NCBI RefSeq assembly: GCF_944387725.1
Contig: NZ_CALXGA010000007.1
Location: 1-50,864 of the forward strand
Length of the DNA stretch: 50,864 nucleotides
Reading direction: 5' to 3'
DNA from: an uncultured Intestinimonas sp.
Lineage (GTDB): Bacteria; Bacillota; Clostridia; Oscillospirales; Oscillospiraceae
The stretch's first letter is position 1. Each line of letters begins with the position of its first letter. The position numbers were made by a program, and so were the translations under genes. Positions 17,283 through 47,347 of this stretch are shown in pieces. The notes under the pieces were generated by a model, which saw only the letters and a program-made list of their open reading frames with translations, searched no databases and was not told the DNA's origin.

Positions 17283-17308
17283 GGGGCCCCGCCGGAGGGC
17301 GGGGCCCC
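17283..17308 (+). terminator. GC hairpin after the DEAD-box helicase
   Basis: Perfect 11-base stem GGGGCCCCGCC / GGCGGGGCCCC with a GGAG loop, 18 bases after the stop codon. The tail (CAGCTCCTTTCTC) is only moderately T-rich. This stem is also the last hairpin of the repeat element at 17283-17395. Confidence 0.65.
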
Positions 17309-17395
17309 CAGCTCCTTTCTCATCCTCGGGCGAAGTAAATTCGCCCTGCGGAAATGCTTCGCTGCGCTGCGTATTTGCGGCGGCACTCGCCGCCG
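17283..17395 (-). repeat. Multi-hairpin intergenic repeat, copy 1 (diverged)
   Basis: Read on the minus strand, this gap between the helicase and cinA shows the same order as the copies at 32079 and 47208. A GC hairpin (GGCGGC/GCCGCC) comes first, then an AAAT/ATTT-bounded hairpin, the conserved CCGCAGGGCG, a stem closed by CGCCCGAGGATG, and a last GC hairpin. The linkers CGCAGGGC and CCGAGGATG match the other copies. The stems differ in sequence but still pair. No protein is encoded. Confidence 0.65.
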
Positions 17396-17426
17396 GCGCC
17401 GGTGTTGGCGATTGGAGGTCTTTACC

Positions 17427-18686
17427 ATGTCTCATACTGCCGAGCTCATCGCTGTGGGCACCGAGCTGCTGCTGGGCAGCATCGCCAACACCGACGCCCA
17501 GATGATCTCCCAGGGCCTGTCCGCCCTGGGCATCAACGTCTACTATCACACCGTGGTGGGGGACAACCCCGAACGCCTCCGCTCCGCTGTGGACATCGCC
17601 AAGGGCCGCGCCGACATCCTCATCACCACTGGCGGCCTGGGTCCCACCTGCGACGACCTCACCAAACAGACCCTGGCCGACGCCTTCGGCCTCCCCCTGG
17701 AGTTTCACCAGCCCTCTGCCGCGCGCATCGCCGGCTACTTCCAGCGGCTCCACCCCACCCGGCCCATGACGGAGAACAACCTCCAGCAGGCCATGCTCCC
17801 CAAGGGCTGCACCGTCCTGGAAAACGACTGGGGCACCGCCCCGGGCTGTGCCTTTCAGGCACAGGGGGTCCATGTAATCATGCTCCCCGGCCCCCCCAGA
17901 GAGTGCCGGGCCATGTTCACCCACCGGGCCCTGACCTACCTGCGCACCCTCTCCGACGGCGCCATTGTCTCCCGGACCCTGAAGATCTTCGGCATGGGGG
18001 AGTCCTCTGTGGAGGCCCTTCTGCGGGAGCAGATGAACGCTATGACCAACCCCACCCTGGCCCCCTACGCCAAAGAGGGGGAGGTGGAGCTGCGCATCAC
18101 CGCCAAGGCCCCCAGTGAGGCGGAGGCCCGGGCCCTCATCGCCCCGGTGGAGGCGCAGCTCCGGGCCCTGCTGGGGGATGTGGTCTACGGCGCCGACGTC
18201 AAGAACCTGGAAAGCGCCGTCTTCGCCCTCCTGAAGGACCGGGGGCTTACCTTCGGCGCCGCCGAATCCTGCACCGGCGGCCTCATCGCCAAGCGCATGA
18301 CCGACCTGCCCGGCGCCTCGGCGGTCTTCCGGGGCGGAGTGGTGAGCTACACCAACGCCGTGAAGCACAGCGTCCTGGGGGTCCCCCAGGCGCTGCTGGA
18401 CCAGTTCGGGGCGGTTTCCCCCCAGGTGGCCCAGGCCATGGCGGAGGGGGCCCGGCGGGTGCTGGACTGCGGCCTGGCCGTCTCCACCACCGGGGTAGCG
18501 GGGCCGGACACCGACGAGCGGGGCAATCCCGTGGGGCTGGTGTATGTGGCCCTGGCGGGGCCGGACTTCTGCCACGTCCGGGAACTCCGGCTGGGGGCCT
18601 CTGGCCGGGCCGGGGTCCGAAACCGGGCCGCCCTCCACGCCTTCGACCAGGTCCGGCGTTCTCTCACTGGCCTGCCCCTGGACTGA
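17427..18686 (+). CDS. cinA: CinA family protein (MoaB-like plus nicotinamide-nucleotide amidase domain)
   Basis: 419 aa. The N-terminal MoCF/COG1058 domain (about residues 1-165) has IAVGTELLLG and TTGGLGPTCDDLTKQ. The C-terminal PncC domain (about 265-419) has AAESCTGGLIAKRMTD and SYTNAVKHSVLGV and deamidates nicotinamide mononucleotide in characterised relatives. Both domains are full length. Start ATG at 17427 was chosen for GGAGG 8 bases upstream. It ends 12 bases before the convergent C-S lyase gene. Confidence 0.93.
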   Translation: MSHTAELIAVGTELLLGSIANTDAQMISQGLSALGINVYYHTVVGDNPERLRSAVDIAKGRADILITTGGLGPTCDDLTKQTLADAFGLPLEFHQPSAARIAGYFQRLHPTRPMTENNLQQAMLPKGCTVLENDWGTAPGCAFQAQGVHVIMLPGPPRECRAMFTHRALTYLRTLSDGAIVSRTLKIFGMGESSVEALLREQMNAMTNPTLAPYAKEGEVELRITAKAPSEAEARALIAPVEAQLRALLGDVVYGADVKNLESAVFALLKDRGLTFGAAESCTGGLIAKRMTDLPGASAVFRGGVVSYTNAVKHSVLGVPQALLDQFGAVSPQVAQAMAEGARRVLDCGLAVSTTGVAGPDTDERGNPVGLVYVALAGPDFCHVRELRLGASGRAGVRNRAALHAFDQVRRSLTGLPLD

Positions 18687-18698
18687 CGGGCCTGCCCT

Positions 18699-19859
18699 TT
18701 ACCCGTTGCGGCGTATCCCGTCCCTGAGCCGCTGGAGGCCGTCCAGCATCCGGCTGCGGGGGCAGGCCAGGTTCATGCGCAGAAACCGCGCCCCATTTCC
18801 CCGGTAGACGTTGCCCGGGGAGAGGCACAGGCCGGCCTGCGCCCGGATCTGCCGGGCCAGCGCCCCGGAGTCCCCGGTTACCACCCCGCAGTCCAGCCAC
18901 AGCAGATAGGTGCCGTGGGAGATCACGGGCCGGACCTGGGGCAGCTCCCGGGCCAGGAAGTCCCGGGCCTGGGCCTTGTTCTCCGCCAGGTAGGCCCGCA
19001 GGGCATCCAGCCAGGGGCCGCCCCGGGTAAAGGCGGCGATGGCCGCCTCCGCCGCGAAGCAGTTGGGCTCGGCCACCTCGTCGGTGTTGAGGGCCCGCCA
19101 GACCTTGTGCCGCAGGACGCCGTCGGGCACCACCACCGCTGAGGTCTGAAGCCCCGCCAGATTGAAGGCCTTGGTGGGGGCGATGCAGGTGATGCTGTTC
19201 TGGCGGCAGTGCTCCGACACCGAGGCGAAGGGGAGGTAGTCACAGCCGGGGTCGGTCAGATCGCAGTGGATCTCGTCGGAGAGGACCATGACATGGTGCT
19301 TCCAGCACAGCTCGCCGACGCGCGCCAGGGTCTCCCGGTCCCAGATGGTCCCCACGGGGTTGTGGGGGTTGCAGAGGATCAGCATGGTGGTCTGCGGGTC
19401 GGCCAGCTTTCCCTCCAGGTCCGCCCAGTCCAGCCCGTACGTCCCATCCCGGTAGGGCAGCGGGCATTCCAGCACCCTCCTGCCGTTGTTCTCAATGGAG
19501 TGGAAGAAAATGTTGTATACCGGGGTCATGGTCAGGATATTCTCCCCCGGCGTGGTGAGCTTGCGCACCACGCTGGAGATGGTGGGCACCACGCCGGTGG
19601 AGAATATCAGCCAGTCCCGCTCCATGTGAAAGCCGTGCCGGTCCCGCCACCAGCCGAGGATGGCGTCATACCACGCCTCCGGCACATCGGTGTAGCCGTA
19701 GATCCCGTGGGAGGCCCTGTCCCGGACGGCGGCGATGATCTCCGGCGCGGTGAGAAAATCCATGTCCGCAATCCACATGGGCAGCTCGTGCCCGGCCACA
19801 TCCCATTTGGCGGCATGGGTGCCCCGGCGGTCCACCACTTGGTCAAAATCATACTGCAT
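18699..19859 (-). CDS. patB: PatB/MalY-type C-S lyase (PLP-dependent)
   Basis: Fold-type I PLP enzyme of 386 aa, likely a cystathionine beta-lyase. Family landmarks: ADMDF near residue 32, GIYGYTDVPEAWYDAI, CNPHNPVG, SDEIHCDL (cofactor aspartate) and APTKAFNLAG, which contains the Schiff-base lysine. The C-terminal FLRMNLACPRSR binds the substrate carboxylate. Start ATG with AAAGGGGAAAG upstream. It lies just after the strong hairpin at 19879-19932, and no own promoter is obvious, so read-through or an undetected promoter is needed. Symbol by family resemblance. Confidence 0.9.
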   Translation of the reverse strand: MQYDFDQVVDRRGTHAAKWDVAGHELPMWIADMDFLTAPEIIAAVRDRASHGIYGYTDVPEAWYDAILGWWRDRHGFHMERDWLIFSTGVVPTISSVVRKLTTPGENILTMTPVYNIFFHSIENNGRRVLECPLPYRDGTYGLDWADLEGKLADPQTTMLILCNPHNPVGTIWDRETLARVGELCWKHHVMVLSDEIHCDLTDPGCDYLPFASVSEHCRQNSITCIAPTKAFNLAGLQTSAVVVPDGVLRHKVWRALNTDEVAEPNCFAAEAAIAAFTRGGPWLDALRAYLAENKAQARDFLARELPQVRPVISHGTYLLWLDCGVVTGDSGALARQIRAQAGLCLSPGNVYRGNGARFLRMNLACPRSRMLDGLQRLRDGIRRNG

Positions 19860-19878
19860 ACGCTCTTTCCCCTTTCCA

Positions 19879-19932
19879 AATAGCCCCTCCCATCCCGACG
19901 GCCGGCCGCCGTCGGGATGGGAGGGGGCTATT
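19879..19932 (-). terminator. Strong hairpin after the solute-binding protein remnant
   Basis: Inverted repeat of about 23 bases per arm (AATAGCCCC...CCCGACGG paired with CCGTCGGG...GGGGGCTATT), one base bulged. The TAG stop of the remnant gene lies inside the stem. On the minus strand it is followed by TTTGGAAAGG, so the T tract is short. It may be a terminator or an attenuator ahead of the C-S lyase gene. Confidence 0.65.
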
Positions 19933-20272
19933 CTGTGGTAATATCTGTGCCAAAATACTGTTCCGACAGCTCCGAGAGCGCGCCGGACGCCCGCATCTCC
20001 TCCAGGGCCTCATTGATGGCGGCCACCAGCCGCTCATTGCCCTTGGGAACGGGAATCTGGGAGGAGGTGGTGGCGTCGGTGGACGCCACGATCCTGACCG
20101 GGGTATCCGGGTGCTTGTTCATGTAGTCATAGAAGGCCGTCTCCGCGTTGAGCATACAGTCGGCCCGGCCGCTGAGAACCAGCTCGACGCCCTCGGCCAC
20201 GGAGTCCACGCTGACCAGCTCCGCGCCGTAGCCCTCCGCCTCCTGTCCCCAGCTGCTGGTCAGGTTCTGGGC
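19928..20272 (-). pseudogene. Amino-acid ABC transporter solute-binding protein, C-terminal fragment
   Basis: About 114 codons remain (AQNLTSSWGQEAEGYGAELV through SELSEQYFGTDITTE), matching the last third of a family 3 solute-binding protein. The ASTDATTSSQIPVPKGNERL stretch is typical. No start codon, signal peptide or N-terminal lobe is present. The 5' end is fused, out of frame, to an SDR oxidoreductase fragment near 20273-20285, which points to a deletion that removed the end of one gene and the start of the other. No companion permease or ATPase genes are nearby. Confidence 0.8.
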
Positions 20273-20611
20273 CGCCCAGGTTGGTATTCATGACATACAT
20301 CATCCAGTCGTCGTCAGTCTCGTCGATGAGCTTCTGCTCGCCGATGCCGGCGTTGTTGATGAGGATGTCCACGTCGCGGAATTCCTTCAGGGCCATCTCA
20401 AAGACCCGCTTGGTGTCCTCGGTGGAGCATACGTCGGCCACCACGCCCACGGCCCTGCCGCCCTTGGCCCGGATGTTCTCCACCACCTGGTCCAGCTTCT
20501 CCTGGTGCCGGGCCGTGAGGACCACCGCCTCCCCCTCCTGGGCGAACAGCTCGGCCATGGTCTGCCCCATGCCGTAGCTGGACCCGGTGATGATGGCCGT
20601 CTTTCCCGCTA

Positions 20612-20773
20612 GGGCTTGTTTGAAAAATAGCAATGTGTCCAGCGGCGAGGGATTTTGGGCCGCCGGCAAGCAATTTTTTCGCAGGAATCCTGGCGGATTG
20701 CAAGGAAAAATTGCGCCGTCCAGGGGGCGAAAGCCCCGCTGATTGGGCATGTTGACTTTTTTCAAACAAGCCC
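20612..20773 (+). mobile_element. MITE, copy A (162 bp)
   Basis: Bounded by GGGCTTGTTTGAAAA and the matching CAAACAAGCCC end, and flanked by TA on both sides (20610-20611 and 20774-20775). Inside is a second inverted repeat (GCAATTTTTT / AAAAATTGC). It has no coding capacity of its own. It sits in codon 6 of the SDR gene, directly beside copy B; the two share one TA. The terminal repeats match the insertion sequence at the right edge of the window. Confidence 0.88.
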
Positions 20774-20775
20774 TA

Positions 20776-20937
20776 GGGCTTGTTTGAAAATTGGCGATGT
20801 GTCCAGCAGCGAGGGATTTTGGGCCTCTGGCAAGCAATTTTTTCGCAGGAATCCTGGCGGATTGCAAGGAAAAATTGCGCCGTCCAGGGGGCAAAAGACC
20901 CGCTGATTGGGCATGTTGACTTTTTTCAAACAAGCCC
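20776..20937 (+). mobile_element. MITE, copy B (162 bp)
   Basis: Same orientation and nearly the same sequence as copy A, flanked by TA at 20774-20775 and 20938-20939. One copy must have inserted into the flanking TA of the other, leaving a head-to-tail pair. Confidence 0.88.
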
Positions 20938-21126
20938 TAACATCTGCTCTTCCATCTTGCGTCTGCTCCTTTTCTATGGAGGCGTCCCGTTGGAACGTGG
21001 CGCTGTTTCCCTGCCCATAGTATCCCACAGCAGATATCATATGTAAAATACTTATTACAAATTTGTTCCGATAGGTTTTCTCTATGCCTTTTATCGGTCT
21101 ATTGCGATGGTTCAAACCGAGCGCCA

Positions 21127-21282
21127 GGGCCTGCTTGAACCATCGCAATGTGTCCAGCATTGAGGATTTTAGCCTGCTGGCATGCAATTTTTGCAGGAGT
21201 CGGGACGGACTTCAAAAAATTGCGCCGCTCAGGAGACAAAAGCCCCGCCGGTTGGGCATGTTGACATTTTTCAAACAAGCCC
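21127..21282 (+). mobile_element. MITE, copy C (diverged, 156 bp)
   Basis: Right end is intact (CAAACAAGCCC then TA at 21283). Left end is diverged (GGGCCTGCTTGAAC), and the interior has small deletions, so it looks older than the other copies. The region 20956-21126 before it holds no gene. It shows an inverted repeat (ATTGCGATGGTTCAA at 21101-21115, repeated inverted inside the MITE at 21135-21149), so part of a second element end may be present. Confidence 0.75.
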
Positions 21283-21319
21283 TAAACGCCTCAGGGCATC
21301 CTTCCGATTCCGGCGGGGC

Positions 21320-21652
21320 TTACTCCTCCTGTTTGGCCTGATACTCCTCGCCCCAGCTGTACATGGCGTCCAGGATCGGTTTCAGGCTGCGCCCCAGCTC
21401 GGTCAGGGTGTACTCCACCCGGGGCGGGACCTCCGGGTAGACGGTGCGGGTCAGAAGTCCGCTTTGCTCCATCTCCCGGAGCTGGGCGGTCAAGACCTTC
21501 TGGCTCACAGTTCCAATGGATTTTTTCAGCTCGCCAAAGCGCTTGGTTCCGGGTATCAGGTCCCGGAGCACCAGCACCTTCCATTTGTCGCTGATCAGTG
21601 TCAGGGTGGTCTCCACAGGGCAGGCCGGGAGAGCCTTGGTTACAGCTGCCAT
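21320..21652 (-). CDS. HxlR-family transcriptional regulator
   Basis: 110 aa winged-helix regulator. It begins with the family pattern CPVETTLTLISDKWKVLVLRDL, where the cysteine is redox- or aldehyde-sensing in some members. GTKRFGELKKSIGTVSQKVLT (recognition helix) and VEYTLTELGRSL follow. Start ATG at 21652 with AAGGGGG upstream. It is divergent from the broken NTF2-like gene, and HxlR genes commonly control a neighbouring oxidoreductase or SnoaL-like gene. The SDR and NTF2-like remnants on either side may be its lost targets. Confidence 0.9.
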   Translation of the reverse strand: MAAVTKALPACPVETTLTLISDKWKVLVLRDLIPGTKRFGELKKSIGTVSQKVLTAQLREMEQSGLLTRTVYPEVPPRVEYTLTELGRSLKPILDAMYSWGEEYQAKQEE

Positions 21653-21780
21653 CACACAGTTCCCCCTTATCGGAATCTCTCTGGGCTGTATGCGCCAATT
21701 TTACCGTTACGCCCAAACCGGTGTCAAGGGGCAAATGGGAATTCTAAAAAATTTTGGCGGCGGCTCAAAGGGTTCCGCTT

Positions 21781-21801
21781 GGTAACGGTCCATTTGTTAC
21801 C
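21781..21801. promoter_or_regulatory. Candidate HxlR operator
   Basis: Palindrome GGTAAC-N9-GTTACC in the region between the divergent HxlR and NTF2-like genes. Spacing and symmetry suit a dimeric winged-helix regulator. Assignment to HxlR is by position only. Confidence 0.45.
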
Positions 21802-21833
21802 TTCTGCTGCCTATCCCACAAGATTGTGCGTAC

Positions 21834-21862
21834 TTTTCAACGGTCTCTGTCTGGGGTATGAT
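21834..21862 (+). promoter_or_regulatory. Promoter of the NTF2-like gene
   Basis: TTTTCA, a 17-base spacer and TATGAT, ending 57 bases before the ATG at 21920. It is downstream of the GGTAAC/GTTACC palindrome. Confidence 0.55.
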
Positions 21863-21919
21863 ACAGACCCAAGGTCGGGAAAGCCCCGCCGGATACCAGC
21901 CCAAAAGGAGCGATGCAAG

Positions 21920-22394
21920 ATGAAGCATACCAAGAAAATCGGAGCCCTGTCCCTGGCGGCGGCGCTGTCCCTGCCGACGGGGTCTCCGGCCTGAATGCCG
22001 CCCTGGCCGCTCTGGCGGAACAGGGCATCCAGATGGTCTACGACCAGACCCACATGGTTCTGGCACAGGGGAATTTTGTCCTGGCGGTGAGCGAGGGCGC
22101 CTACGGCGGTGCGCCCACCAGCTGCTACGACCTGTGGCGGGTGGAAAACGGCAAGATCGCCGATCACTGGGATGTGATGGAGACCATCGCCGAGGCCTAG
22201 GGCTTGTTTGAAACATGTCAACATGCCCAACCGGCGGGTCTTTTGTCCCCTGGACGGCGCAATTTTTCCTTGAAATCCGCCAGGATTCCTGCGAAAAAAT
22301 TGCTTGCCAGAGGCCCAAAATCCCTCGCTGCTGGACACATCGCCAGTTTTCAAACAAGCCCTACGCCTGGCAGAACGGCAACGGCAAATTCTGA
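21920..22394 (+). pseudogene. SnoaL/NTF2-like secreted protein, decayed and MITE-interrupted
   Basis: AAAAGGAG and an ATG start a signal-peptide-like sequence (MKHTKKIGALSLAAALSLPT) that soon hits a stop at 21992. In another frame the C-terminal half of an NTF2-like domain follows (IQMVYDQTHMVLAQGNFVLA, SEGAYGGAPTSCYDLWRVEN, GKIADHWDVMETIAEA). An internal deletion or frameshift is therefore present. The end is cut by MITE D: removing it restores EAYAWQNGNGKF and a TGA at 22392, the usual NGKF-type end of this family. No product of normal function is expected. Confidence 0.8.
22200..22361 (-). mobile_element. MITE, copy D (162 bp, inverted)
   Basis: Opposite orientation to copies A, B, C and E. 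Flanked by TA (22198-22199 and 22362-22363), the duplication of a single TA in a tyrosine codon of the NTF2-like gene. The first TA plus the first G of the element now forms the stop codon TAG. Confidence 0.9.
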
Positions 22395-22421
22395 CCGGCC
22401 ACTGTCCGAAGAAACAACAGA

Positions 22422-22458
22422 GACCGGACCCGAGGGCTTCCCGCCTTCGGGTCCGGTC
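22422..22458 (-). terminator. Terminator of the trmO/AlgX-like transcription unit
   Basis: Perfect 12-base stem GACCGGACCCGA / TCGGGTCCGGTC, followed on the minus strand by TCTGTTGTTTCTT. It lies 33 bases after the stop codon of the AlgX-like gene. Confidence 0.75.
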
Positions 22459-22490
22459 CCCTTCGCGTTCGCGGGGCGTCCGGCTGAGGT

Positions 22491-23849: not shown

Positions 23850-23901
23850 GGGAAGTCTCCTTTCCGGGGCTGGGCCCCAGGATGTCTGCTGCGGGCGGTC
23901 C

Positions 23902-24591
23902 TCACGCCAGGGGCTGGATCTCCCGGACGGTGAGGACCGGGCCGTCCACCGTAAAGCGGACGTTCCATCCGGCAAAGGCCATGCCGTAGACCCGATCCGT
24001 GCCGTTCTGGTAGGGGGGGCGGGGATCCCGGGCCAGGACCCCCAGCAGGGCCTCCCGCTTGTCCGGGGGAATCCGGGTCAGAAGGGCCTCCGGGCAGGCC
24101 ACCTCCAGAAGCGCCCCGCCGCCGGCGCCGGCAAAGCCCCCGGAGGCGTCGGGGTGGCAGTCGCCGTAGGGGAGGTAGGGCTTGAGGTCCAGAATGGGGG
24201 TGCCATCCATCAGGTCGGCCCCGGAGACCACCAGCACCGGACCCTCCGGGGTGTGGAGGTCCACCTTCTCCAGCCGCACTGACGAAAGGCCGATGGGGTT
24301 GGGCCGGAAGGGGGAGCGGGTGGCGAAGACCCCCATGCGGACGTTGCCCCCCAGCCGGGGCGGGCGCACGGTGGGGGACCAGCCCTCCCGCACCGAGGCT
24401 GAAAAGAGCCAGAGCAGCCAGAGGTGGGAAAAGCCCTCCAGCCCCCGGAGGGCGGCGGGGTCCCGGTAGTCCGGCTCAAAGACCACCGTGGCCCGGAGGG
24501 CCTCCACCAGGCCGCTCTGCCGGGGAATGCCGAATTTGGTGGGAAAGTCGCTGCGGATGCGGGCCACGCATTTGAGAGGGGGCAGGTCCAT
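23902..24591 (-). CDS. trmO: tRNA (N6-threonylcarbamoyladenosine(37)-N6)-methyltransferase TrmO
   Basis: 229 aa, full length. The TsaA/UPF0066 core is clear: FPTKFGIPRQSGL, LEGFSHLWLLWLF, GVFATRSPFRPNPIGLS and DLMDGTPILDLKPYLPY. The C-terminal part ends with the short RFTVDGPVLTV segment seen in bacterial TrmO. The enzyme methylates t6A37 in threonine tRNAs using S-adenosylmethionine. Start ATG with GAAGGAGG upstream. It lies 90 bases downstream of the GGDEF gene and is transcribed in the same direction. Confidence 0.92.
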   Translation of the reverse strand: MDLPPLKCVARIRSDFPTKFGIPRQSGLVEALRATVVFEPDYRDPAALRGLEGFSHLWLLWLFSASVREGWSPTVRPPRLGGNVRMGVFATRSPFRPNPIGLSSVRLEKVDLHTPEGPVLVVSGADLMDGTPILDLKPYLPYGDCHPDASGGFAGAGGGALLEVACPEALLTRIPPDKREALLGVLARDPRPPYQNGTDRVYGMAFAGWNVRFTVDGPVLTVREIQPLA

Positions 24592-24681
24592 GGGGCCTCC
24601 TTCTCCCGCCGGGGCGGGGTGAGTTTCCGGGGGACAGGGCCGCCGGTCCGGTAAGGGCTGCGCAAGCCGCCGCGAGGGGGG

Positions 24682-26085: not shown

Positions 26086-26164
26086 AGCACTTGCCCCCTC
26101 TAAATGCGGAGGCAGACTCGCACAGGATGGCCACGATCTTCCCGTCCGCGTATTTTGTGGTCTC

Positions 26165-32078: not shown

Positions 32079-32216
32079 GGGCCCCCGCGCAAGCGGGGAC
32101 GCCGCAGGTGCGGCGTACAAGCGTTTTGGCCGGAGGCCAAAACCTTGCCGCAGGGCGGATTCACTCCGCCCGAGGATGTCAAAAATCTTGGGGTCCCATT
32201 TTGATGGGAAGCATCC
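32079..32216 (+). repeat. Multi-hairpin intergenic repeat, copy 2 (138 bp)
   Basis: Order of parts: stem 1 (CCCCCGC/GCGGGG), stem 2 (CGCCGCA/TGCGGCG), linker TACAAGCG, stem 3 (TTTTGGCC/GGCCAAAA), linker CCTTG, CCGCAGGGCGGA paired with TCCGCCC (stem 4), linker GAGGATG, then AAAAATCTTGGGGTCCCATT leading into stem 5. It begins GGGCCCCC, as copy 5 begins GGGCCCC. It starts 36 bases upstream of the rpsR start codon, with the gene on the opposite strand. Confidence 0.85.
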
Positions 32217-32308
32217 GGGCCCCCGCGCAAGCGGGGACGCCGCAGGGCGGATTCACTCCGCCCGAGGATGTCAAAAATCCTGGGGTCCCATTTTGATGGG
32301 AAGCATCC
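32217..32308 (+). repeat. Multi-hairpin intergenic repeat, copy 3 (92 bp, stem 3 deleted)
   Basis: Nearly identical to copies 2 and 4 but missing 46 bases that include half of stem 2, the TACAAGCG linker and stem 3. The deletion lies between two GCCGCAGG direct repeats, so it looks like a recombination or slippage product. Confidence 0.85.
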
Positions 32309-32443
32309 GGGCCCCCGCGCAAGCGGGGACGCCGCAGGTGCGGCGTACAAGCGTTTTGGCCGGAGGCCAAAACCTTGCCGCAGGGCGGATTCACTCCGCC
32401 CGAGGATGTCAAAAATCTTGGGGTCCCATTTTGATGCAGAGCA
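32309..32443 (+). repeat. Multi-hairpin intergenic repeat, copy 4
   Basis: Full copy, identical to copy 2 over most of its length, ending in CCCATTTTGATGC. This end pairs with GCATCAAAATGGGA, which contains the last codons and stop codon of ssb, forming a perfect stem across the gene end. Copies 2 to 4 form a tandem array between ssb and rpsR. Confidence 0.82.
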
Positions 32444-32941
32444 TCAAAATGGGAGATCGCCGTCGTCATCCTCCACCTCGGCAAACTGGTTCCCGCCGCC
32501 CATGGGGGCGGAGTAGGCCGGAGGCGGAACAGGGGCGCTGGGGGCGGGGGCCGCCGGCGCGGCGTAGCTGCCGCCGTAACCGCCGCCATGATAGCCGCCG
32601 TAGCCTCCCTCGCCGTCCCGCTTGGAGTCACCGAAGTAGACATTGTCGGCCACCACCTCGGCGGCGACGCGGCGGTTGCCGTCCCGGTCGGTGTAGTCCC
32701 GCATTTGCAGGCGGCCCTCCACCACGGCCATGCGGCCCTTGGAGAAGAACCGGGAGACAAACTCGGCGGTACTCCGCCAGGCCACAATGTTGATGAAGTC
32801 GGCCTTCTTCTCGCCGGTCTCCCGGTCCTTGTAGTCCCGGTCCACCGCCAGGCGGAAGGAGGTCACAGCCACCCCGGAGGTGGTGTGGCGCATTTCCGGG
32901 TCGGCCACCAGCCGGCCCTGGAGGAAAATTTTGTTGAGCAT
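32444..32941 (-). CDS. ssb: Single-stranded DNA-binding protein
   Basis: 165 aa. The OB fold covers about residues 1-110 (MLNKIFLQGRLVADPEMRHT, FINIVAWRSTAEFVSRFFSK, VEGRLQMRDYTDRDGNRR). A glycine-, alanine- and proline-rich linker follows, and the acidic tip DDDGDLPF recruits repair and replication partners. Middle gene of rpsF-ssb-rpsR. Its stop codon lies inside a hairpin made with repeat copy 4. Confidence 0.97.
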   Translation of the reverse strand: MLNKIFLQGRLVADPEMRHTTSGVAVTSFRLAVDRDYKDRETGEKKADFINIVAWRSTAEFVSRFFSKGRMAVVEGRLQMRDYTDRDGNRRVAAEVVADNVYFGDSKRDGEGGYGGYHGGGYGGSYAAPAAPAPSAPVPPPAYSAPMGGGNQFAEVEDDDGDLPF

Positions 32942-39475: not shown

Positions 39476-39510
39476 AACCGTTCCATGCGTCCACTGGGCA
39501 GTCATGGCGT

Positions 39511-39555: not shown

Positions 39556-39688
39556 ACCGGGCCAGGGGACCACGGCGGGATTGGGCGCTGGCCGCGCCTT
39601 GGCAGGCAGCGTTCGGTTGTCGTGGCGCTCCCTGGAAGGACAAAGGGGCGCAGCTCGCAGTCCCATCCCAACCGGCGGGGCAAACCCT

Positions 39689-40282: not shown

Positions 40283-40426
40283 CCCACAACCTCGTTTCCC
40301 TTTGCAAGCCGCCCCCGGAGGCCGCAGGCCATTGGCAGAAAGGGCGGCACACAGGCTCTATGCCCATGTGCCGTCCGCTGTTCCACACGGCGTCCAGCGC
40401 CCGGGGCGCCCCGCCGCGATCCGTCT

Positions 40427-42154: not shown

Positions 42155-42186
42155 GGGAAGGACCTCCTCTTTGTGTGGTACTTATC

Positions 42187-42216
42187 AGTATAACACAAAA
42201 GTCCCTTCGGCTTCAA
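42187..42216 (-). promoter_or_regulatory. Promoter of pgcA
   Basis: On the minus strand TTGAAG, an 18-base spacer and TATACT, about 30 bases before the start codon. Confidence 0.7.
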
Positions 42217-42254
42217 TGGGGATCTGTCCATTTTACCAGGGAAATGGGCAAATC

Positions 42255-42273
42255 CTCCGCAAAAACTGCGGAG
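42255..42273 (-). terminator. Terminator-like hairpin after rlmH
   Basis: Stem CTCCGCA / TGCGGAG with a 5-base loop, 2 bases after the rlmH stop codon, followed on the minus strand by GATTTGCCCATTT. The T run is short, so termination may be partial. Confidence 0.55.
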
Positions 42274-42275
42274 AC

Positions 42276-42758
42276 TTACTTGTGGTAGCCGGAGCCCTCC
42301 CGAATCTTGAAGGCCCGGTAGATCTGCTCCAAAAGCATCACCCGGGCCAGGTGGTGGGGGAAGGTCATGGGGGACATGGAGAGCCGCATCCGGGCCTCTG
42401 CTTTGAGCTTCTCGTCCAGCCCGTGGGAGCCCCCCACCAGGAAGACCATCTGCCGGGCGCTGCTTCCCTCCCAGGCGTTCAGACAGTCGGCCAGCTCCCG
42501 GCTGGAGCACATCCGGCCCTCCACGCACAGGGCCGTCACCCAGGCGCCGGGGGGGAGCTTGCCCCGAATGGCCGCCGCCTCCTTCTCCAGAGCCTTTTCG
42601 ATCTGGGCCGGAGCGGGGTCCCTGGGCAGGCGCTCCTCCGGCAGCTCCACCACCTGGAGCTTGCAGTAGGCCGACAGCCGCTTGGCGTACTCGGCGCAGG
42701 CGTCCTGGTAAAAGCGCTCCTTCAGCTTGCCCACGCAGATAAGATGGATGCTCTTCAC
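42276..42758 (-). CDS. rlmH: 23S rRNA (pseudouridine(1915)-N3)-methyltransferase RlmH
   Basis: 160 aa SPOUT methyltransferase. IHLICVGKLKERFYQDACAE at the start, FLVGGSHGLDEKLKAEARMR and the C-terminal MTFPHHLARVMLLEQIYRAF are diagnostic; the knot binds S-adenosylmethionine. The start is a GTG at 42758, chosen for GGAGG ahead of it. It lies 13 bases after the walJ stop codon; this order (walJ then rlmH) recalls the yycJ region of Bacillus. Confidence 0.95.
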   Translation of the reverse strand: MKSIHLICVGKLKERFYQDACAEYAKRLSAYCKLQVVELPEERLPRDPAPAQIEKALEKEAAAIRGKLPPGAWVTALCVEGRMCSSRELADCLNAWEGSSARQMVFLVGGSHGLDEKLKAEARMRLSMSPMTFPHHLARVMLLEQIYRAFKIREGSGYHK

Positions 42759-42771
42759 GGAAGGCCCCTCC

Positions 42772-43560
42772 TTACACCGGGTAGGTGGGCCCGGTCCCGG
42801 ACCGGGGGGCCACCTCCAAAAGCACGTCCCGCCCAGGCTGAGCACCGCAGTCCAGCAGGGCAGTGCTCACAGCGGCATAGGCGTGCTCAGGGGTGTTGTT
42901 CTCGGCGGAGAGGTGGGCCAGCACCACAGTCCGGGTCCCCGCCTCCACGGCGGAGCGGGCCAGGGCGCCCCCCGCCTCGTTGGACAGATGGCCACACTCC
43001 CCCAGGATGCGCCGCTTCAAGGGGAGGGGATAGGGCCCCGACAGGAGCCGCTCCTCGTCGTAATTAGCCTCCACCAGCACCAGAGAAGCCCCGGCTATTC
43101 CTGCCCGGACGTCCTGGGTCACCACCCCCAGGTCGGTGACCACGGCGGCCTTCCGCCCCCCGCCGGAGACAGCAAAGCCCATGGGCGCGGCTGCGTCGTG
43201 GAGGGTGGGAAAGGTCTCCACGTCCAGGCCCCCCAGGGTGAAGGCCGCGCCTGGGGCCACGGGATGGAGCAAGTCCTCCAGGGCGGCTATGCGGTAGCAC
43301 AGCTGCCGTCCGGTGCCGGGGCTGGTGTAGACTGGCACCCGGTACCGCTTGGCCAGGGCGGCCAGGCCGGAGATGTGGTCGGTGTGCTCATGGGTAATGA
43401 GCACGCCCGCCAGGGCGGCCGGTTCCAGGCCCAGGGCCCCCAGGGCCCCGGTGATCCGGCGGCAGGAGATGCCCGCGTCCAGGAGCACATGGGTCTCCCC
43501 GTCGGAGAGGAGGGCGCAGTTCCCGGAGGAGCCGCTGGCCAGCGTGGTGAGTGTCAGCAA
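42772..43560 (-). CDS. walJ: WalJ/YycJ-like metallo-beta-lactamase-fold hydrolase
   Basis: 262 aa. The metal-binding motif HEHTDH is followed by further ligands in LHDA and near the C-terminus (LAHLSAENN). The start LASGSSGNCALL is the WalJ/YycJ signature. WalJ is encoded in the walRK operon of Bacillus and is thought to coordinate wall metabolism with replication. Here it sits about 3 kb from walRK on the opposite strand, between murA and rlmH. The RNase-like activity of the fold is not proven for this protein. Confidence 0.88.
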   Translation of the reverse strand: MLTLTTLASGSSGNCALLSDGETHVLLDAGISCRRITGALGALGLEPAALAGVLITHEHTDHISGLAALAKRYRVPVYTSPGTGRQLCYRIAALEDLLHPVAPGAAFTLGGLDVETFPTLHDAAAPMGFAVSGGGRKAAVVTDLGVVTQDVRAGIAGASLVLVEANYDEERLLSGPYPLPLKRRILGECGHLSNEAGGALARSAVEAGTRTVVLAHLSAENNTPEHAYAAVSTALLDCGAQPGRDVLLEVAPRSGTGPTYPV

Positions 43561-43637
43561 GGAAATCGCTCCTATGTACGGTTTTTCGGCAGCGCAGCCG
43601 GGGCAACGTGTTCCGCCGCTCCGGCTGCGTCTTTCTT

Positions 43638-44939
43638 TCAGCCCGCCGAGGCCTGGGGCTTTCCCTCGTCTGGGATGACCATCACCCGGATGTCGGCCCC
43701 CACGCCGGAGAGCTTGCGGACAATGTCCTCATAGCCCCGCTCAATGAAGTGGACGCAGTCCACCTCCGTGGTGCCCTGGGCGGCCAGTCCGGCGATGACC
43801 ATGGCCGCCCCCGCCCGGAGGTCACAGGCCTGCACCGGGGCCCCGGTGAGCCGGTCCACCCCCTCGATGACGGCCACCTTGCCGTCCACCTGGATGCGGG
43901 CCCCCATGCGGCGGATCTCGTCCACATAGCGGTAGCGGCTGTCCCAGACCCCCTCGGTGATGACGCTGGTGCCCTCCGCCTGGCACAGGGCCACGGCAAT
44001 CTGGGGCTGCATATCGGTGGGGAAGCCGGGATAGGGCAGGGTCTTGACGTTGGCCCGGGTCAGGCGGCGGTTGGGGTCCCGGCGGACCACCACGAAGTCG
44101 TCGGACTCCTCCACCTCCACCCCCATCTCCATGAGCTTGACGGTGATGCAGTCCAGGTGCTTGGGGATGACGTTCCGAATGCGCGCCTCTCCCCCGGCGG
44201 CGGCCACAGCGGCCATATAGGTCCCGGCCTCGATCTGGTCGGGAATGATGGAGTAGGTCCCGCCTCCCAGGCGGTCCACCCCCCGGATTTTGATGACGTC
44301 GGTCCCCGCCCCCATGATGTCGGCCCCCATGGAGTTGAGGAAGTTGGCCAGGTCCACAATATGGGGCTCCTTGGCGGCGTTTTCGATGATGGTCATGCCC
44401 TTGGCCAGGGTGGCCGCCAGCATGATGTTCATGGTGGCCCCCACGGAGACGATGTCCAGGTAGACCTGTCCCCCCCGCAGGCGCCCCCCCTGTGCCGAAG
44501 CGTTGATATAGCCGCCGCTGACGTCCACGTCGGCCCCCATGGCCACAAAGCCCTTGATGTGCTGGTCGATGGGCCGGGCCCCCAGATGGCAGCCCCCCGG
44601 CGGGGGCACCTGGGAGAGGCCGAACCGGCCCAGCAGGGCCCCGATGAGGTAATAGGAGGCCCGAATCTGCCGGGCCATGCTGTCGGGCACCTTGGCGTTC
44701 TGGATGTGGGTGCAGTCGATGTCCACCGTGGTCCGGTCCACGGTGCGCACGTCGGCGCCCAGCTCCTGGAGAATCTTCAATAACAGGGTCACGTCGCTGA
44801 TCTGGGGGATGTTCTCAATCCGGCACACCCCGTCCACCAACAGGGCGGCGGGAATAATGGCCACCGCGGCGTTCTTGGCGCCGCTGATGTCAATCTCCCC
44901 GTACAACGGCCTGCCTCCCTGGATCACATACTTCGTCAA
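43638..44939 (-). CDS. murA: UDP-N-acetylglucosamine 1-carboxyvinyltransferase
   Basis: First committed enzyme of peptidoglycan synthesis, 433 aa. K22 and N23 (SGAKNAAV) are present, and the fosfomycin-targeted cysteine is C117 in PPPGGCHLGARPID. YSIIPDQIEAGTYM and TVKLMEMGVEVEE are typical. Start ATG at 44939; the ribosome site is moderate (GAAGGTGC). It heads a murA-walJ-rlmH unit of envelope and ribosome genes with its own promoter at 45075-45103. Confidence 0.96.
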   Translation of the reverse strand: MTKYVIQGGRPLYGEIDISGAKNAAVAIIPAALLVDGVCRIENIPQISDVTLLLKILQELGADVRTVDRTTVDIDCTHIQNAKVPDSMARQIRASYYLIGALLGRFGLSQVPPPGGCHLGARPIDQHIKGFVAMGADVDVSGGYINASAQGGRLRGGQVYLDIVSVGATMNIMLAATLAKGMTIIENAAKEPHIVDLANFLNSMGADIMGAGTDVIKIRGVDRLGGGTYSIIPDQIEAGTYMAAVAAAGGEARIRNVIPKHLDCITVKLMEMGVEVEESDDFVVVRRDPNRRLTRANVKTLPYPGFPTDMQPQIAVALCQAEGTSVITEGVWDSRYRYVDEIRRMGARIQVDGKVAVIEGVDRLTGAPVQACDLRAGAAMVIAGLAAQGTTEVDCVHFIERGYEDIVRKLSGVGADIRVMVIPDEGKPQASAG

Positions 44940-45074
44940 TACCGCACCTTCTATTCTCTCGCAGCTCCCCGGCGGGGCCGGGGGCGCGTATCAAGGGCCG
45001 GTTTTTCCCCCGGCCCTGGTAAATGCTGACTCCGGCGGGGGTCCAATGCCGTCCGCCCGCTCCAATACAAGGAT

Positions 45075-45103
45075 ATTATATCATTCCTAGTATGTAAAAT
45101 CAA
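45075..45103 (-). promoter_or_regulatory. Promoter of murA
   Basis: On the minus strand TTGATT, a 17-base spacer and TATAAT, with about 130 bases of leader before the murA start. Confidence 0.75.
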
Positions 45104-45181
45104 AAGAAATTTTACGCAAATGTTACGGCATTCTTTTCTGGAAAAGATTTCACGAAGTGGTGTGCCCGGAACCGGCCGGTT

Positions 45182-45670
45182 TTATTCCAGCCGCTCCCTG
45201 GAATCGTCAAAAAGAACGGCCAGGGCCCGGCCGCACAGCCGGAGGCGTCCGGCCTCCTGGGGCGGGGGCCCCTCCTGGGGGAGACCCAGCCCCGCCAGGA
45301 GGCGGCGGGCCCCCTGGGCCTCCTCTGGAAGGGTCAGCCAGCGCCGATCCCCCTGCCAAACCGCCTCGGCCTGAGCGCACAGGCCGCCCAGGTCCCGGGC
45401 GGCGGCCAGGAGCCCCTCCAGCTCCGGGAAGGGGTACCACACCCGCCGGGGGGCCAGGGAGCGGACAAAGAGCAGCAGCCCATCCCGCTGGGGATAGGCC
45501 TCCAGCTCCAGGGGGTGCTCCAGGGTCAGGCCCGCCAGGGCGGCCCCCTCCCGGACCAGGGCCAGGGCCTCTTCCAGGTTCAGCGCCTCCGGGTCCGTCC
45601 CCCGGGCCCACAGCTCCTCCCGGGTCATGGTGAGGAGGGCTCCCCGCCCTCCCACCGGCTGCATCGTCAT
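45182..45670 (-). CDS. Divergent MecA-like adaptor protein
   Basis: 162 aa. The N-terminus (LLTMTREELWARGTDPEALN) follows the MecA pattern of a short strand, then LTREDLxxRG and an acidic helix. The C-terminal half (YPFPELEGLLAAARDLGGLC, AVWQGDRRWLTLPEE, CGRALAVLFDD) matches the order of elements in the ClpC-binding domain of MecA. It is shorter than MecA (about 220 aa) and the similarity is weak, so the call is tentative. If correct, it would deliver proteins to the ClpCP protease. Start ATG at 45670 with GGAGG upstream. Confidence 0.55.
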   Translation of the reverse strand: MTMQPVGGRGALLTMTREELWARGTDPEALNLEEALALVREGAALAGLTLEHPLELEAYPQRDGLLLFVRSLAPRRVWYPFPELEGLLAAARDLGGLCAQAEAVWQGDRRWLTLPEEAQGARRLLAGLGLPQEGPPPQEAGRLRLCGRALAVLFDDSRERLE

Positions 45671-45780
45671 ATCCGTACCTCCAGTCTCTCCCGCCGGGGC
45701 GAGAGACAGTTTTGTACCCTCCATTATAGAGGACCGGTCCTCCGGGTAGAAGCTGTAATCCCTGGAGATAACGGGAATGA

Positions 45781-45809
45781 TTGCAGTTTTTCCAAATTCA
45801 TGATATACT
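45781..45809 (+). promoter_or_regulatory. Promoter of the Nudix gene
   Basis: TTGCAG, a 17-base spacer and TATACT, about 60 bases before the start codon. It may also drive walRK, as no clear promoter lies between the Nudix gene and walR. Confidence 0.75.
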
Positions 45810-45867
45810 AGAGGGCGAAAACAAATTCAGGCCCGGGCCGCCTCCGGGCGGACAGGAGCGGAGAAGC

Positions 45868-46404
45868 ATGGAGTTTGAGGAAAAGACGGTATCCAGCAGG
45901 CCGGTGTTCAAGGGGGTCATCGTAGACCTGCGGGTGGACCATGTGCGCCTGCCCAACGGCAGAAGCGCCAAGCGGGAGGTGGTCTCCCACCCCGGGGGCG
46001 TGTGCGTGGTCCCCTACCACGACGACGGCACGGTCACCGTGGTCCGACAATTCCGATACCCCATTGGCCGGGTCATCACGGAGCTCCCCGCCGGCAAGCT
46101 GGAGCGGGGAGAGGACCACCGCCTGGCCGGTATCCGGGAGCTGGAGGAGGAGACCGGCCTCACCGCCGGGGAATTCACCTACCTGGGGGGGATGCTCTCC
46201 TCCCCAGGCTTTTCCGATGAGGTCATCCACCTCTACCTGGCCAGGGGGCTCCGCCAGGGGAAGCAGCACCTGGACCCAGACGAGTTTCTGGCGTACCGGC
46301 GGGTGCCCTTCCCGGAGCTGTTGGACCAGGTTATGCGGGGAGAGCTCCAGGACGGCAAGACCGTCGCGGGCCTGCTGAAGACCAAGGTTTTCCTGGGCCT
46401 GTGA
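45868..46404 (+). CDS. nudF: ADP-ribose pyrophosphatase (Nudix hydrolase)
   Basis: 178 aa. The Nudix box is complete: GKLERGE, seven residues, then RELEEETGL. The EFEEKTVSSRPVFKGVIVDL start, VVRQFRYPIGR and PGFSDEVIHLYLA are typical of ADP-sugar pyrophosphatases. It hydrolyses ADP-ribose to AMP and ribose 5-phosphate. The start at 45868 has AGGAGCGGAG upstream. It lies 65 bases before walR on the same strand. Confidence 0.92.
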   Translation: MEFEEKTVSSRPVFKGVIVDLRVDHVRLPNGRSAKREVVSHPGGVCVVPYHDDGTVTVVRQFRYPIGRVITELPAGKLERGEDHRLAGIRELEEETGLTAGEFTYLGGMLSSPGFSDEVIHLYLARGLRQGKQHLDPDEFLAYRRVPFPELLDQVMRGELQDGKTVAGLLKTKVFLGL

Positions 46405-46410
46405 GCAGCC

Positions 46411-46442
46411 AGGCCCGCCGGAGCGTCAGCTCCTGCGGGCCT
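46411..46442 (+). terminator. Hairpin between the Nudix gene and walR
   Basis: Inverted repeat AGGCCCGC..GGAGC / GCTCC..GCGGGCCT with a 4-base loop and one mismatch, followed by TGAGTTCG. There is no T run, so it may be a weak terminator, an RNA-processing site or a stabilising stem. Confidence 0.45.
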
Positions 46443-46469
46443 TGAGTTCGAACGAAAGGAAGGCACACC

Positions 46470-47168
46470 ATGGGAAAGACCATCCTCATCGTGGAGGACG
46501 AGAAGAATATTGTGGACATCCTCAGCTACAACCTGAATAAGGAGGGCTACGCCACCCTGGAGGCCTACGACGGCGACGCCGGCCTCCAGCTTGCTCTGGA
46601 GCAGGACCCCGACCTCATTCTGCTGGACCTGATGCTGCCCAGGAAGAGCGGCTTTGACGTCTGCCGGGACCTGCGGACGGAGGGCCGCACCACCCCCATC
46701 ATCATGCTCACCGCCCGGGAGGAGGAGACCGACAAGGTGCTGGGGCTGGAGCTGGGGGCAGACGACTATATCACCAAGCCCTTTTCCATGCGGGAGCTTC
46801 TGGCCCGAGTGAAGGCCAACATCCGCCGGAGCACCATGGCCCCCTCCGCCGGGACGGCCCCTGCGGGCCGGATGGAGCTGGGCCGCATCGCCATTGACAC
46901 CGAGCTGCTGATGGCCTACAAGGACAACCTGCCCCTGGACCTGACCCAGCGGGAATACGAGCTGCTCAAGTTCCTGGCCTCCAACCCGGGAAAGGTCTTC
47001 TCCCGGGAGGCGCTGATGGAAAATGTGTGGAACTACGAGGGCTATGTGGGGGACGTCCGGGCGGTGGACGTCGCCGTCCGCCGGCTCCGGGAAAAAGTGG
47101 AGGACGACCCGGCCTCTCCGCAGTTTGTCATTACCAGAAGAGGGCTGGGGTACCTCTTCAACGCCTGA
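46470..47168 (+). CDS. walR: OmpR/PhoB-type response regulator (WalR-like)
   Basis: 232 aa. The receiver domain has the acidic pocket E9/D10, phospho-acceptor D53 (LLDLMLP), T81 and K103 (TKPFS). The winged-helix DNA-binding domain spans about 135-232 (LTQREYELLKFLASNPGKVF, VAVRRLREKVEDDP, TRRGLGYLF). Next to a PAS-containing kinase and a YycH-like gene it is best read as WalR, the regulator of wall metabolism; PhoP is the main alternative. Its last 22 codons and the following bases are duplicated at 47348-47421. Confidence 0.88.
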   Translation: MGKTILIVEDEKNIVDILSYNLNKEGYATLEAYDGDAGLQLALEQDPDLILLDLMLPRKSGFDVCRDLRTEGRTTPIIMLTAREEETDKVLGLELGADDYITKPFSMRELLARVKANIRRSTMAPSAGTAPAGRMELGRIAIDTELLMAYKDNLPLDLTQREYELLKFLASNPGKVFSREALMENVWNYEGYVGDVRAVDVAVRRLREKVEDDPASPQFVITRRGLGYLFNA

Positions 47169-47175
47169 GTACGGC
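47102..47175 (+). repeat. 74-bp direct repeat, first copy (end of walR)
   Basis: The last 22 codons of walR, its stop codon and seven following bases. An identical 74-base copy lies 246 bases downstream. Confidence 0.95.
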
Positions 47176-47207
47176 ACAGCGCTGCGGAGGCTGGGGCGTC
47201 CTCCACA

Positions 47208-47347
47208 GGGCCCCATCGCAGATGGGGCGGCGCGTCAGCGCCGTACAAGCGTTTCGGGCCAACGGCCCGAAACCTTGGCGCAGGGCAATTTATTTGCCCC
47301 GAGCATGTTCCATCCCAATGGGGTCCCCATGCGGCGCCGCATGGGGC
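47208..47347 (+). repeat. Multi-hairpin intergenic repeat, copy 5 (140 bp)
   Basis: Same order as copy 2 with different stem sequences: CCCCAT/ATGGGG, CGGCGC/GCGCCG, linker TACAAGCG, TTTCGGGCC/GGCCCGAAA, linker CCTTG, GCGCAGGGCAA paired with TTGCCC, linker CCGAGCATG, then GGGGTCCCCATGCGG paired with CCGCATGGGG. It lies between walR and walK. The end CGCCGCATGGGGC occurs again at 47452-47464, just before the walK ribosome site. Confidence 0.85.

What the first reader, a model, noticed from the sequence alone, without database searches (positions are those of the whole stretch)
17283..47347. A dispersed multi-hairpin element with compensating stem changes
Copies at 17283-17395 (minus), 32079-32443 (three in tandem) and 47208-47347 share short unpaired linkers: TACAAGCG (not in the 17.3-kb copy), CCTTG (likewise absent there), CGCAGGGC, CCGAG-N-ATG and GGGGTCCC. 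The hairpins between them have different sequences that still pair. For example stem 3 is TTTTGGCC/GGCCAAAA in one copy and TTTCGGGCC/GGCCCGAAA in another, and stem 2 is CGCCGCA/TGCGGCG against CGGCGC/GCGCCG. Conserved linkers with covarying stems point to selection on structure, as RNA or as a folded single-stranded DNA transposition substrate. The copies sit between co-directional genes (helicase/cinA, ssb/rpsR, walR/walK). I know of no named family with this layout.
Basis: partly seen in the sequence, partly recalled or inferred. Interest (0 to 1): 0.78.

Follow-up and report, generated by a model that had tools for sequence, protein, structure and literature searches.

The report
Gene-end-copying hairpin element in gut bacteria
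A small folded DNA element, scattered in many copies through some gut bacteria, sits at the ends of ordinary genes together with a second, still intact copy of the gene's last stretch and a short mirror-image copy of the insertion point; we found no described family with this design.

Summary
The copies belong to a structured element. A covariance model matches 16-48 places in ten of eleven genomes of the genus (1 in the eleventh) and 94 in a genome of another Oscillospirales family; candidates scored were capped, so these are lower bounds. Covariation is strong (18 of 26 pairs doubly changed in a structure-blind alignment). Rfam has no match.

In 132 of 172 element blocks the element lies between two direct copies (median visible length 67 bp) of a neighbouring gene's end; control 1 of 678. 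The order is gene body, copy A, X, element, copy B. X is a short inverted copy of the target across the left end of A. In a symmetric test a gene runs across that left boundary in 93 of 132 loci, across the right one in 7. A and B differ mostly at synonymous sites (296:54 sense, 24:9 antisense), so both stay coding-competent. A segment has changed places between A and B at uvrB in two species. Relatives have empty sites.

Best reading: a non-autonomous, folded mobile element that spares its target gene. The enzyme is unknown. RAYT-like genes lie beside uvrB in five species; no causal link is shown.

The parts
   Evidence: ORF; orthologues and empty sites
47099..47175 (+). A: first copy of the gene end, contiguous with the gene body, with the stop codon
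   Evidence: D1
47187..47206 (+). X: inverted copy of the target, pairs with 47097-47116 across the left boundary of A
   Evidence: I1, 90% complementary
47211..47227 (+). H1 hairpin CCCCATC/GATGGGG
   Evidence: sequence; not part of the model, covariation of H1 not counted
47228..47243 (+). H2 hairpin CGGCGC/GCGCCG
   Evidence: sequence; covarying helix 1
47246..47277 (+). H3: CAAG ... CTTG with bulged C, stem GTTTCGGGCC/GGCCCGAAAC
   Evidence: helix 2
47278..47304 (+). H4 with GCA/GA internal loop and the covarying N-N' pair (47278 with 47304)
   Evidence: helices 3 and 4
47325..47346 (+). H5 terminal hairpin after GGGGTCCC
   Evidence: the stretch in this position folds with z below -2 against base shuffles in 103 of 110 loci
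47345..47421 (+). B: second copy of the gene end; alignment start overlaps the end of H5 by two bases
   Evidence: D1
32079..32206 (+). element copy, complete
32215..32298 (+). deletion derivative of the element
32309..32436 (+). element copy, complete, third of the tandem; its last arm merges with the end of the ssb gene (minus strand)
17301..17400 (-). diverged element copy upstream of cinA, antisense to it
17395..17412 (-). X of the 17-kb copy, pairs with 17481-17498 inside cinA; no copy B found here
   Evidence: flank score 8

Best explanation
This is a family of non-autonomous mobile DNA elements of Oscillospirales. The conserved core E (H1-H5, about 150 nt) is recognised as a folded single strand. 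SHOWN: typical occupied sites read gene body - A - X - E - B. A and B are two copies of the same gene end (visible length mostly 40-110 bp), and X is an inverted copy of the target around the left end of A, clear in about half the loci. A completes the gene, so insertion is harmless. B is kept as a coding-competent copy. Sites without X, E or B exist in relatives, and A and B have exchanged a segment at one site. INFERRED: the unit is gained and lost at the same sites on evolutionary time scales, through recombination between A and B and through an excision and re-insertion step guided by the X/target pairing. Both copies therefore take turns as the working gene end, and selection keeps both. 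INFERRED AND WEAK: the enzyme is a trans-acting HUH/Y1-type protein, perhaps RAYT-like.
For: Structure. Copy number: 16-48 matches in ten of eleven genus genomes, 1 in the other, 94 in G042 (69 and 150 candidates scored per genome). Direct repeats: 132 of 172 blocks at score 20 or more, 1 of 678 permuted pairs (orthologous pairs left out of that control); B starts 28-34 nt after the model end (interquartile). X: helix score with the target around the A boundary has median 32, against 18 for other loci's targets and 23 for the B side; 68 of 131 exceed the control's 99th percentile. X pairs better with the A side than with the B side in 106 loci, equally in 5, worse in 20. With a target window of -120 to +60 the best helix spans the boundary in 92 of 130 loci, and in 67 of the 72 that score 32 or more. 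A gene frame runs across the left boundary in 93 of 132 loci and across the right one in 7. A/B differences: 296 synonymous to 54 (104 sense loci), 24 to 9 (20 antisense loci); if only A were constrained 46% synonymous is expected, nominal p 5e-51 and 0.0016, not corrected for shared ancestry. Empty sites without a model match: walR in G004 and G024, uvrB in G001, G002, G005, G008. Segment swap at uvrB between G003 and G006. Tandem blocks 24 of 174.
Against: No transposition was observed and no enzyme identified. Y1, RVT_1, DDE_Tnp_1 and TnpB Pfam searches are negative in G042 (94 matches) and G020 (16), although the Y1 model also missed RAYT-like genes that are present. 800 kb of G042's 1.9 Mb held 41 copies and no RAYT-like gene by tblastn with two queries. 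40 of 172 blocks show no repeat at score 20, and in G042 only 5 of 33 tested copies reach it, against a control maximum of 53.5 there. X is not above the control's 99th percentile in 63 of 131 loci. 37 of 132 loci pass the gene-span test on neither side. Some sites look vertically inherited across genera (infB, truB). At uvrB the empty G001 end resembles A of G006 (8 differences of 84) more than B (17), which does not fit a simple 'B native, A foreign' story. Informative sites on exchange are 53 parallel to 31 swapped, and some swapped ones may be convergence. Most genus genomes are MAGs.
Confidence: 0.6

Rival explanations
1. The element is a REP/REPIN-like substrate of a RAYT transposase, a new branch of a known kind.
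For: RAYT-like genes (NCBIfam REP_Tyr_transpos 65.8 and 67.4 bits, below its cut-off of 80) lie downstream of uvrB, next to an element, in G003, G006, G007 and G009, and without one in G001. Hairpins and an intergenic dispersed distribution fit.
Against: RAYT genes are described as always flanked by two inverted REPs (PMC2817692, abstract passage seen); here an element is on one side only or absent, within the 480-782 bp held beyond the gene. That paper also says IS200/IS605 members make no larger target duplications. No RAYT-like gene in 800 kb of G042.
Confidence: 0.2
2. An intron-like RNA: A-X-E is removed from the transcript, X acting as an internal guide across the 5' junction, joining gene body to B.
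For: X pairs across the body/A boundary like a guide sequence; B keeps its stop in register in 50 of 55 sense loci.
Against: 20 of 125 loci with a called gene are antisense to it yet have the same layout, and there too A/B differences are mostly synonymous. No Rfam intron match. A makes splicing unnecessary.
Confidence: 0.1
3. A structured 3' UTR or terminator RNA under ordinary selection, with the flanking repeats made by replication slippage at its hairpins.
For: Strong hairpins; 105 of 125 loci with a called gene are in its sense; some copies abut terminator-like hairpins (by eye).
Against: Does not explain X, the antisense copies at gene starts, or the shared core in dozens of unrelated loci.
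Confidence: 0.12
4. A miniature relative of IS1634-type DDE elements, which are recalled to make long, variable target duplications.
For: Long variable direct repeats.
Against: DDE_Tnp_1 absent in G042, G020, G032 and eight of the eleven genus genomes; X is unexplained. Terminal inverted repeats of the IS1634 kind were not searched for; the IS1634 property is recalled, not read here.
Confidence: 0.04

Closest known systems
Mobile ORFs of fungal mitochondrial DNA that carry a replacement C-terminus (Allomyces atp6; Glomus atp6, atp9, cox2, nad3; PMC3630166, passages seen)
   Same: The insertion brings a copy that completes the gene; the native end is displaced downstream; for atp6 the native end is said to differ from a relative's only by synonymous changes.
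   Different: Those encode a homing endonuclease and are long; here I saw no ORF, a conserved hairpin core, an inverted target copy X, and tens of sites per genome.
REPs/REPINs with RAYT transposases (PMC2817692, PMC3116915, passages seen)
   Same: Short, folded, dispersed, non-autonomous; Y1-type genes occur in some host genomes.
   Different: Core of five hairpins rather than two REPs; long gene-end repeats; X; no inverted pair around the RAYT gene in the held flanks.
IS200/IS605 elements (recalled; duplication statement from a passage of PMC2817692)
   Same: Short guide-like pairing with the cleavage flank is a known principle (recalled).
   Different: Pairing of about 13-21 nt in the clear cases instead of about 4 (recalled); long direct repeats; no tnpA inside.
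IS1634/IS1549 (recalled)
   Same: Long, variable target duplications.
   Different: Full DDE insertion sequences with terminal inverted repeats.

Membership tests
REP/REPIN with RAYT | RAYT gene flanked by two inverted copies | tested here: not met
   Five uvrB loci: element on one side in four, none in G001; only 480-782 bp held beyond the gene
REP/REPIN with RAYT | Y1 REP-associated transposase in copy-rich genomes | tested here: inconclusive
   RAYT-like genes found in G001, G003, G006, G007, G009; none in 800 kb of G042; the own genome was tested only with PF01797, which misses them
IS200/IS605 | no larger target duplication | tested here: not met
   132 of 172 blocks have long direct repeats
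IS1634-like DDE MITE | matching DDE transposase in copy-rich genomes | tested here: not met
   PF01609 absent in G042, G020, G032 and eight of eleven genus genomes
IS1634-like DDE MITE | terminal inverted repeats | not tested
   no search made for them
OMEGA/TnpB guide RNA | TnpB-family nuclease in copy-rich genomes | tested here: not met
   PF07282 absent in G042, G020, G032, G009, G005; present in G000 and G010; IscB not searched
Group I/II intron | intron core matching Rfam | tested here: not met
   (window, one element locus, seven loci)
Retroelement | reverse transcriptase in copy-rich genomes | tested here: not met
   PF00078 absent in G042, G020 and eight of eleven genus genomes
Known Rfam RNA | match above gathering score | tested here: not met
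Replacement-end homing element (as in fungal mtDNA) | insertion carries a gene end that completes the gene, another gene end displaced | tested here: met
   which copy is native is not settled
Replacement-end homing element (as in fungal mtDNA) | encodes or uses a homing endonuclease | not tested
   no endonuclease families searched

The most novel reading that the evidence does not exclude
A new class of guided homing element: a folded nucleic acid whose short guide (X) is copied from each new target at insertion, which returns to that same site in empty chromosomes, and which protects its host gene by carrying a replacement gene end. Repeated loss and return keep two alternating, coding-competent gene ends alive.
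Probability: 0.25. Interest if true: 0.93.

Novelty: categorically new. Interest (0 to 1): 0.85.

Why it matters
If right, bacteria have a way of inserting DNA into genes without breaking them, by duplicating the gene's end, in many copies per genome and at recurrent genes (by my reading uvrB, infB, walR, truB, uvrC, prfC). It leaves a readable record: a guide-like inverted target copy and two selected gene ends. It would add a bacterial counterpart to the fungal replacement-end elements. It also gives an open question, how hairpin elements without genes spread, a testable system, with the isolate Vescimonas fastidiosa MM35 as one named carrier.

Tried and rejected
Splicing was my favourite for a time, because X spans the boundary and B is coding. 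I moved away when the antisense loci showed the same layout and mostly synonymous A/B differences. An RNA-guided nuclease of the TnpB kind was not found in copy-rich G042. I first concluded 'no Y1 enzyme'. That was wrong as a general statement: reading downstream of uvrB showed RAYT-like genes that score 16.6-18.2 bits with PF01797, below its cut-off of 23. So every Pfam negative here is only as good as its model. The pattern scan of viral contigs gave 19 stretches, and cmsearch found no element in any of them at E 0.001. Three records deposited as phage carry the element; I looked at the genes of one and it reads as a bacterial contig. Literature searches found no description of this element; only openly licensed papers are held, and I saw search listings plus found passages of PMC3630166, PMC8040213, PMC2817692 and PMC3116915, none in full. 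One script stopped with an error in the 26th of 28 clusters, so its totals were never printed; I used only rows it printed.

Two statistics are biased and I do not rest on them: the counts of X pairing with body over element end (269:8) and A over B (30:5) were taken on helices chosen to fit the A side, and '68 of 68 span the boundary' used a narrow window centred on it. One search replaces both. In one search the count '125 loci with the gene on the left' tested the left side only; one search gives the symmetric test (93 left, 7 right, of which 5 both; 37 neither).

Rows left out: of 33 core sequences printed, 26 went into (duplicates, near-duplicates and odd or wrong cuts dropped). Of 123 matches, one partial was dropped. 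Of 57 matches, three were left out (L020 and L355, already present as other loci, and a partial of L349). Blocks L418-L437 use the positions. In one search, 33 of the 41 matches were used. Orthologous sites in several species were counted as separate loci.
Full report
WHERE. The window is contig 7 of a 2.18-Mb draft genome, 85% complete. This is an inference.

THE ELEMENT IS REAL. The copies of the finding are present. A DNA search of the own genome lists 14 matches, 13 of them at E 1e-5 or better. Twenty-six copies from the own genome and relatives were aligned by MAFFT alone. The structure is H2, then CAAG-H3-CTTG with a bulged C, then H4 with a GCA/GA internal loop and a TTCAY loop. It has 94.0% of 667 cells paired, 18 of 26 pairs changed on both sides, and 0 of 500 shuffles as high; slid versions reach at most 50.5% paired. 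A covariance model matches 16-48 places in the own genome and nine of ten others of the genus, 1 in the tenth, and something in 22 of 60 genomes searched, the own included (69 candidates scored per genome). G042, of another family, has 94 matches among 150 scored candidates and G020 has 16. Over the order 16 of 147 genomes match, with copy-rich genera in two families (28 candidates scored per genome). Neither the gathering search of the window nor two permissive searches of element loci name it in Rfam.

THE FLANKS. Each locus was oriented along the element and the 300 bases on either side compared. In 132 of 172 blocks the best direct repeat scores 20 or more, against 1 of 678 when left and right flanks of different, non-orthologous loci are paired. 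An earlier control without that exclusion had one high score among 300, 72, which I take for an orthologous pair. The right copy, B, begins 28-34 nt after the model end (interquartile), that is, just after the terminal hairpin H5. The H5 stretch folds with z below -2 against base shuffles in 103 of 110 loci. Visible repeat lengths run from 38 to 111 (5th to 95th percentile), median 67. In the window this is the 77-bp repeat around the 47-kb copy.

WHICH GENE PART IS COPIED. A codon-usage score trained on four window genes calls a gene on the left of A in 125 of the 132 loci: 105 in the sense of the element, 20 antisense to it. A stricter, symmetric test asks whether the frame of the outside 234 bases goes on for 30 bases into the repeat. 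It is met at the left boundary in 93 of 132 loci and at the right boundary in 7 (5 of them both); 37 meet it at neither, some because the repeat or the held flank is short. In 68 loci examined singly the stop of sense genes mostly lies within about 15 bases of the visible end of A. So the element typically lies just outside a gene, next to a full copy of that gene's end, and a second copy follows it. By my own reading of the translations, from recalled protein motifs, targets include walR, uvrB, infB, groEL, ssb/rpsR, uvrC, truB, lepA and prfC; truB is confirmed by annotation.

X. Between A and the element lies X, complementary to the target around the left end of A. Its helix score with that target has median 32, against 18 for other loci's targets and 23 for the B side; 68 of 131 loci exceed the control's 99th percentile, with helices of 13-21 bases. 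X pairs better with the A side than with the B side in 106 loci, equally in 5, worse in 20. In a wide window (120 bases before to 60 after) the best helix spans the boundary in 92 of 130 loci, and in 67 of the 72 with score 32 or more. At walR in eight species X keeps its pairing while the spacer beside it is unrelated between species (by eye). X therefore looks maintained, not just left over. In the window X is 47187-47206 and, for the cinA copy, 17395-17412. I found no convincing X for the 32-kb group (best helix score 21, which falls on the H1 stem).

B IS KEPT CODING. Counting codon by codon inside the repeat, first codon left out, sense loci (104, 1893 codons) show 56, 32 and 296 differences at positions 1, 2 and 3, with 296 synonymous and 54 non-synonymous codons. 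Antisense loci (20, 281 codons) show 6, 7 and 26, with 24 to 9. A random change is synonymous in 29.8% of cases. If only A were constrained, 46% synonymous would be expected; the observed 85% and 73% give p of 5e-51 and 0.0016. These are nominal, since loci are not all independent. The first codon at the junction is the exception: 2 synonymous to 13 non-synonymous in 55 sense loci. That count anchors on the stop codon and gives 168 to 63 overall, a less extreme ratio because that codon is included and a few loci lose register; the stop is in register in 50 of 55.

EXCHANGE AND LOSS. At walR the site is occupied in G000, G001, G003, G005, G006 and G009; in G010 A, X and B are there but the core is interrupted and the model does not match; G002 has an element but no second gene end that I recognised; G004 and G024 have a single gene end and no match. 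At uvrB it is occupied in G003, G004, G006, G007 and G009 (there in tandem), and G001, G002, G005 and G008 have a single gene end and no match. A and B are identical over 66 bases at walR in G000, G005 and G009 but differ between those species. At uvrB the left segment of A in G003 is the left segment of B in G006 and the reverse, including a TCG/AGC serine switch that convergence would hardly make. Over all pairs of orthologous sites 53 informative positions are parallel and 31 swapped. Tandem arrays occur in 24 of 174 blocks. In many printed pairs of close species A and B differ more than the gene body does (rows), as expected if lineages of A and B are older than the species and trade places. 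Against the simplest import story, the empty G001 end is nearer to A of G006 (8 of 84) than to B (17), and about equally far from A and B of G003 (15 and 14).

OTHER GENERA. The truB-start site is also occupied in the isolate Vescimonas fastidiosa MM35 (NZ_AP023416.1, about 428.4 kb), with A, X-like sequence, element and B. infB is occupied in a second genus (L176). In G042 the core is recognisable with other linkers. Five of 33 tested copies reach a repeat score of 20, one of them plainly a gene end with its stop (L482); the control there reaches 53.5 because repeats abound.

ENZYME. Pfam searches over 60 genomes for Y1_Tnp, RVT_1, DDE_Tnp_1 and TnpB are negative in G042 and G020. Reading the uvrB loci showed a RAYT-like gene downstream in G001, G003, G006 and G009 and a second kind in G007. 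NCBIfam places both kinds nearest REP_Tyr_transpos (E 3.8e-18 and 1.2e-18, 65.8 and 67.4 bits, cut-off 80) while PF01797 gives 16.6-18.2 bits. No PDB sequence matches at E 0.01. So the Y1 negative is unreliable. No RAYT-like gene and no HUH-like ORF appears in 800 kb of G042. The element lies beside the RAYT-like gene in four of the five loci and only on one side.

READING. The layout is best explained by an element that inserts as a unit, leaves the gene whole, and can be lost without a visible scar. Constraint on B in both orientations argues against a role in the mRNA alone and for a DNA-level turnover in which either copy may become the working end. How X is made is open: copying of the target by fold-back synthesis during insertion would give its sequence, and selection for pairing would keep it. 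The nearest precedent known to me is fungal mitochondrial mobile ORFs with replacement C-termini (PMC3630166, passages). Those carry an endonuclease gene; in this element I saw no ORF.

LIMITS. Most genus genomes are MAGs; G005, G009 and G032 are 99% complete and show the same layout. One genome per species is held, so polymorphism within a species was not testable. Nothing here measures transcription or movement.

Noticed in passing
L439 1955-2455, L441, L440, L442, L438 (downstream of uvrB): RAYT-like Y1 transposase genes sit downstream of uvrB in five Intestinimonas-like genomes, two different kinds at the same place, and are missed by Pfam PF01797 at its cut-off.
   Followed up: partly
L352 (G010 walR site): The core of the walR-site element is interrupted by another hairpin-rich stretch (GGGCCCCCAAACGAAGCCC...GGGTTCGTTTGGG).
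   Followed up: no
L274 (G009, 556300-558700): Two tandem copies are identical in the core but the loop of H5 reads CTTTG in one and CAAAG in the other, as if the hairpin had flipped.
   Followed up: no
window 32215-32298: The middle tandem copy seems to have lost its centre by deletion between two CCGCAGG repeats.
   Followed up: no
G042, G066, G084, G128: All four sampled genomes of one genus in another family saturate the search (28 of 28 scored candidates match); the intergenic regions of G042 that I read are full of GC-rich palindromes, some next to terminator-like hairpins or tRNAs.
   Followed up: partly
MT838705.1, MT838853.1, MT839134.1 (L468-L470): Records deposited as bacteriophage carry this element; MT838705 encodes what I read as a peptide chain release factor 3-like protein and looks like a bacterial contig. 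The other two were not read.
   Followed up: partly
L025/L166, L033, L030, L177, L200, L203: A subclass of copies ends in a GGGTGGAG...GGACCC-like hairpin directly followed by a terminator-like hairpin; in L166 the terminator itself appears to be the duplicated stretch.
   Followed up: no
window 32424-32454: In the ssb-rpsR copies the last hairpin arm coincides with the end of the ssb coding sequence, so the element end overlaps the gene end.
   Followed up: no
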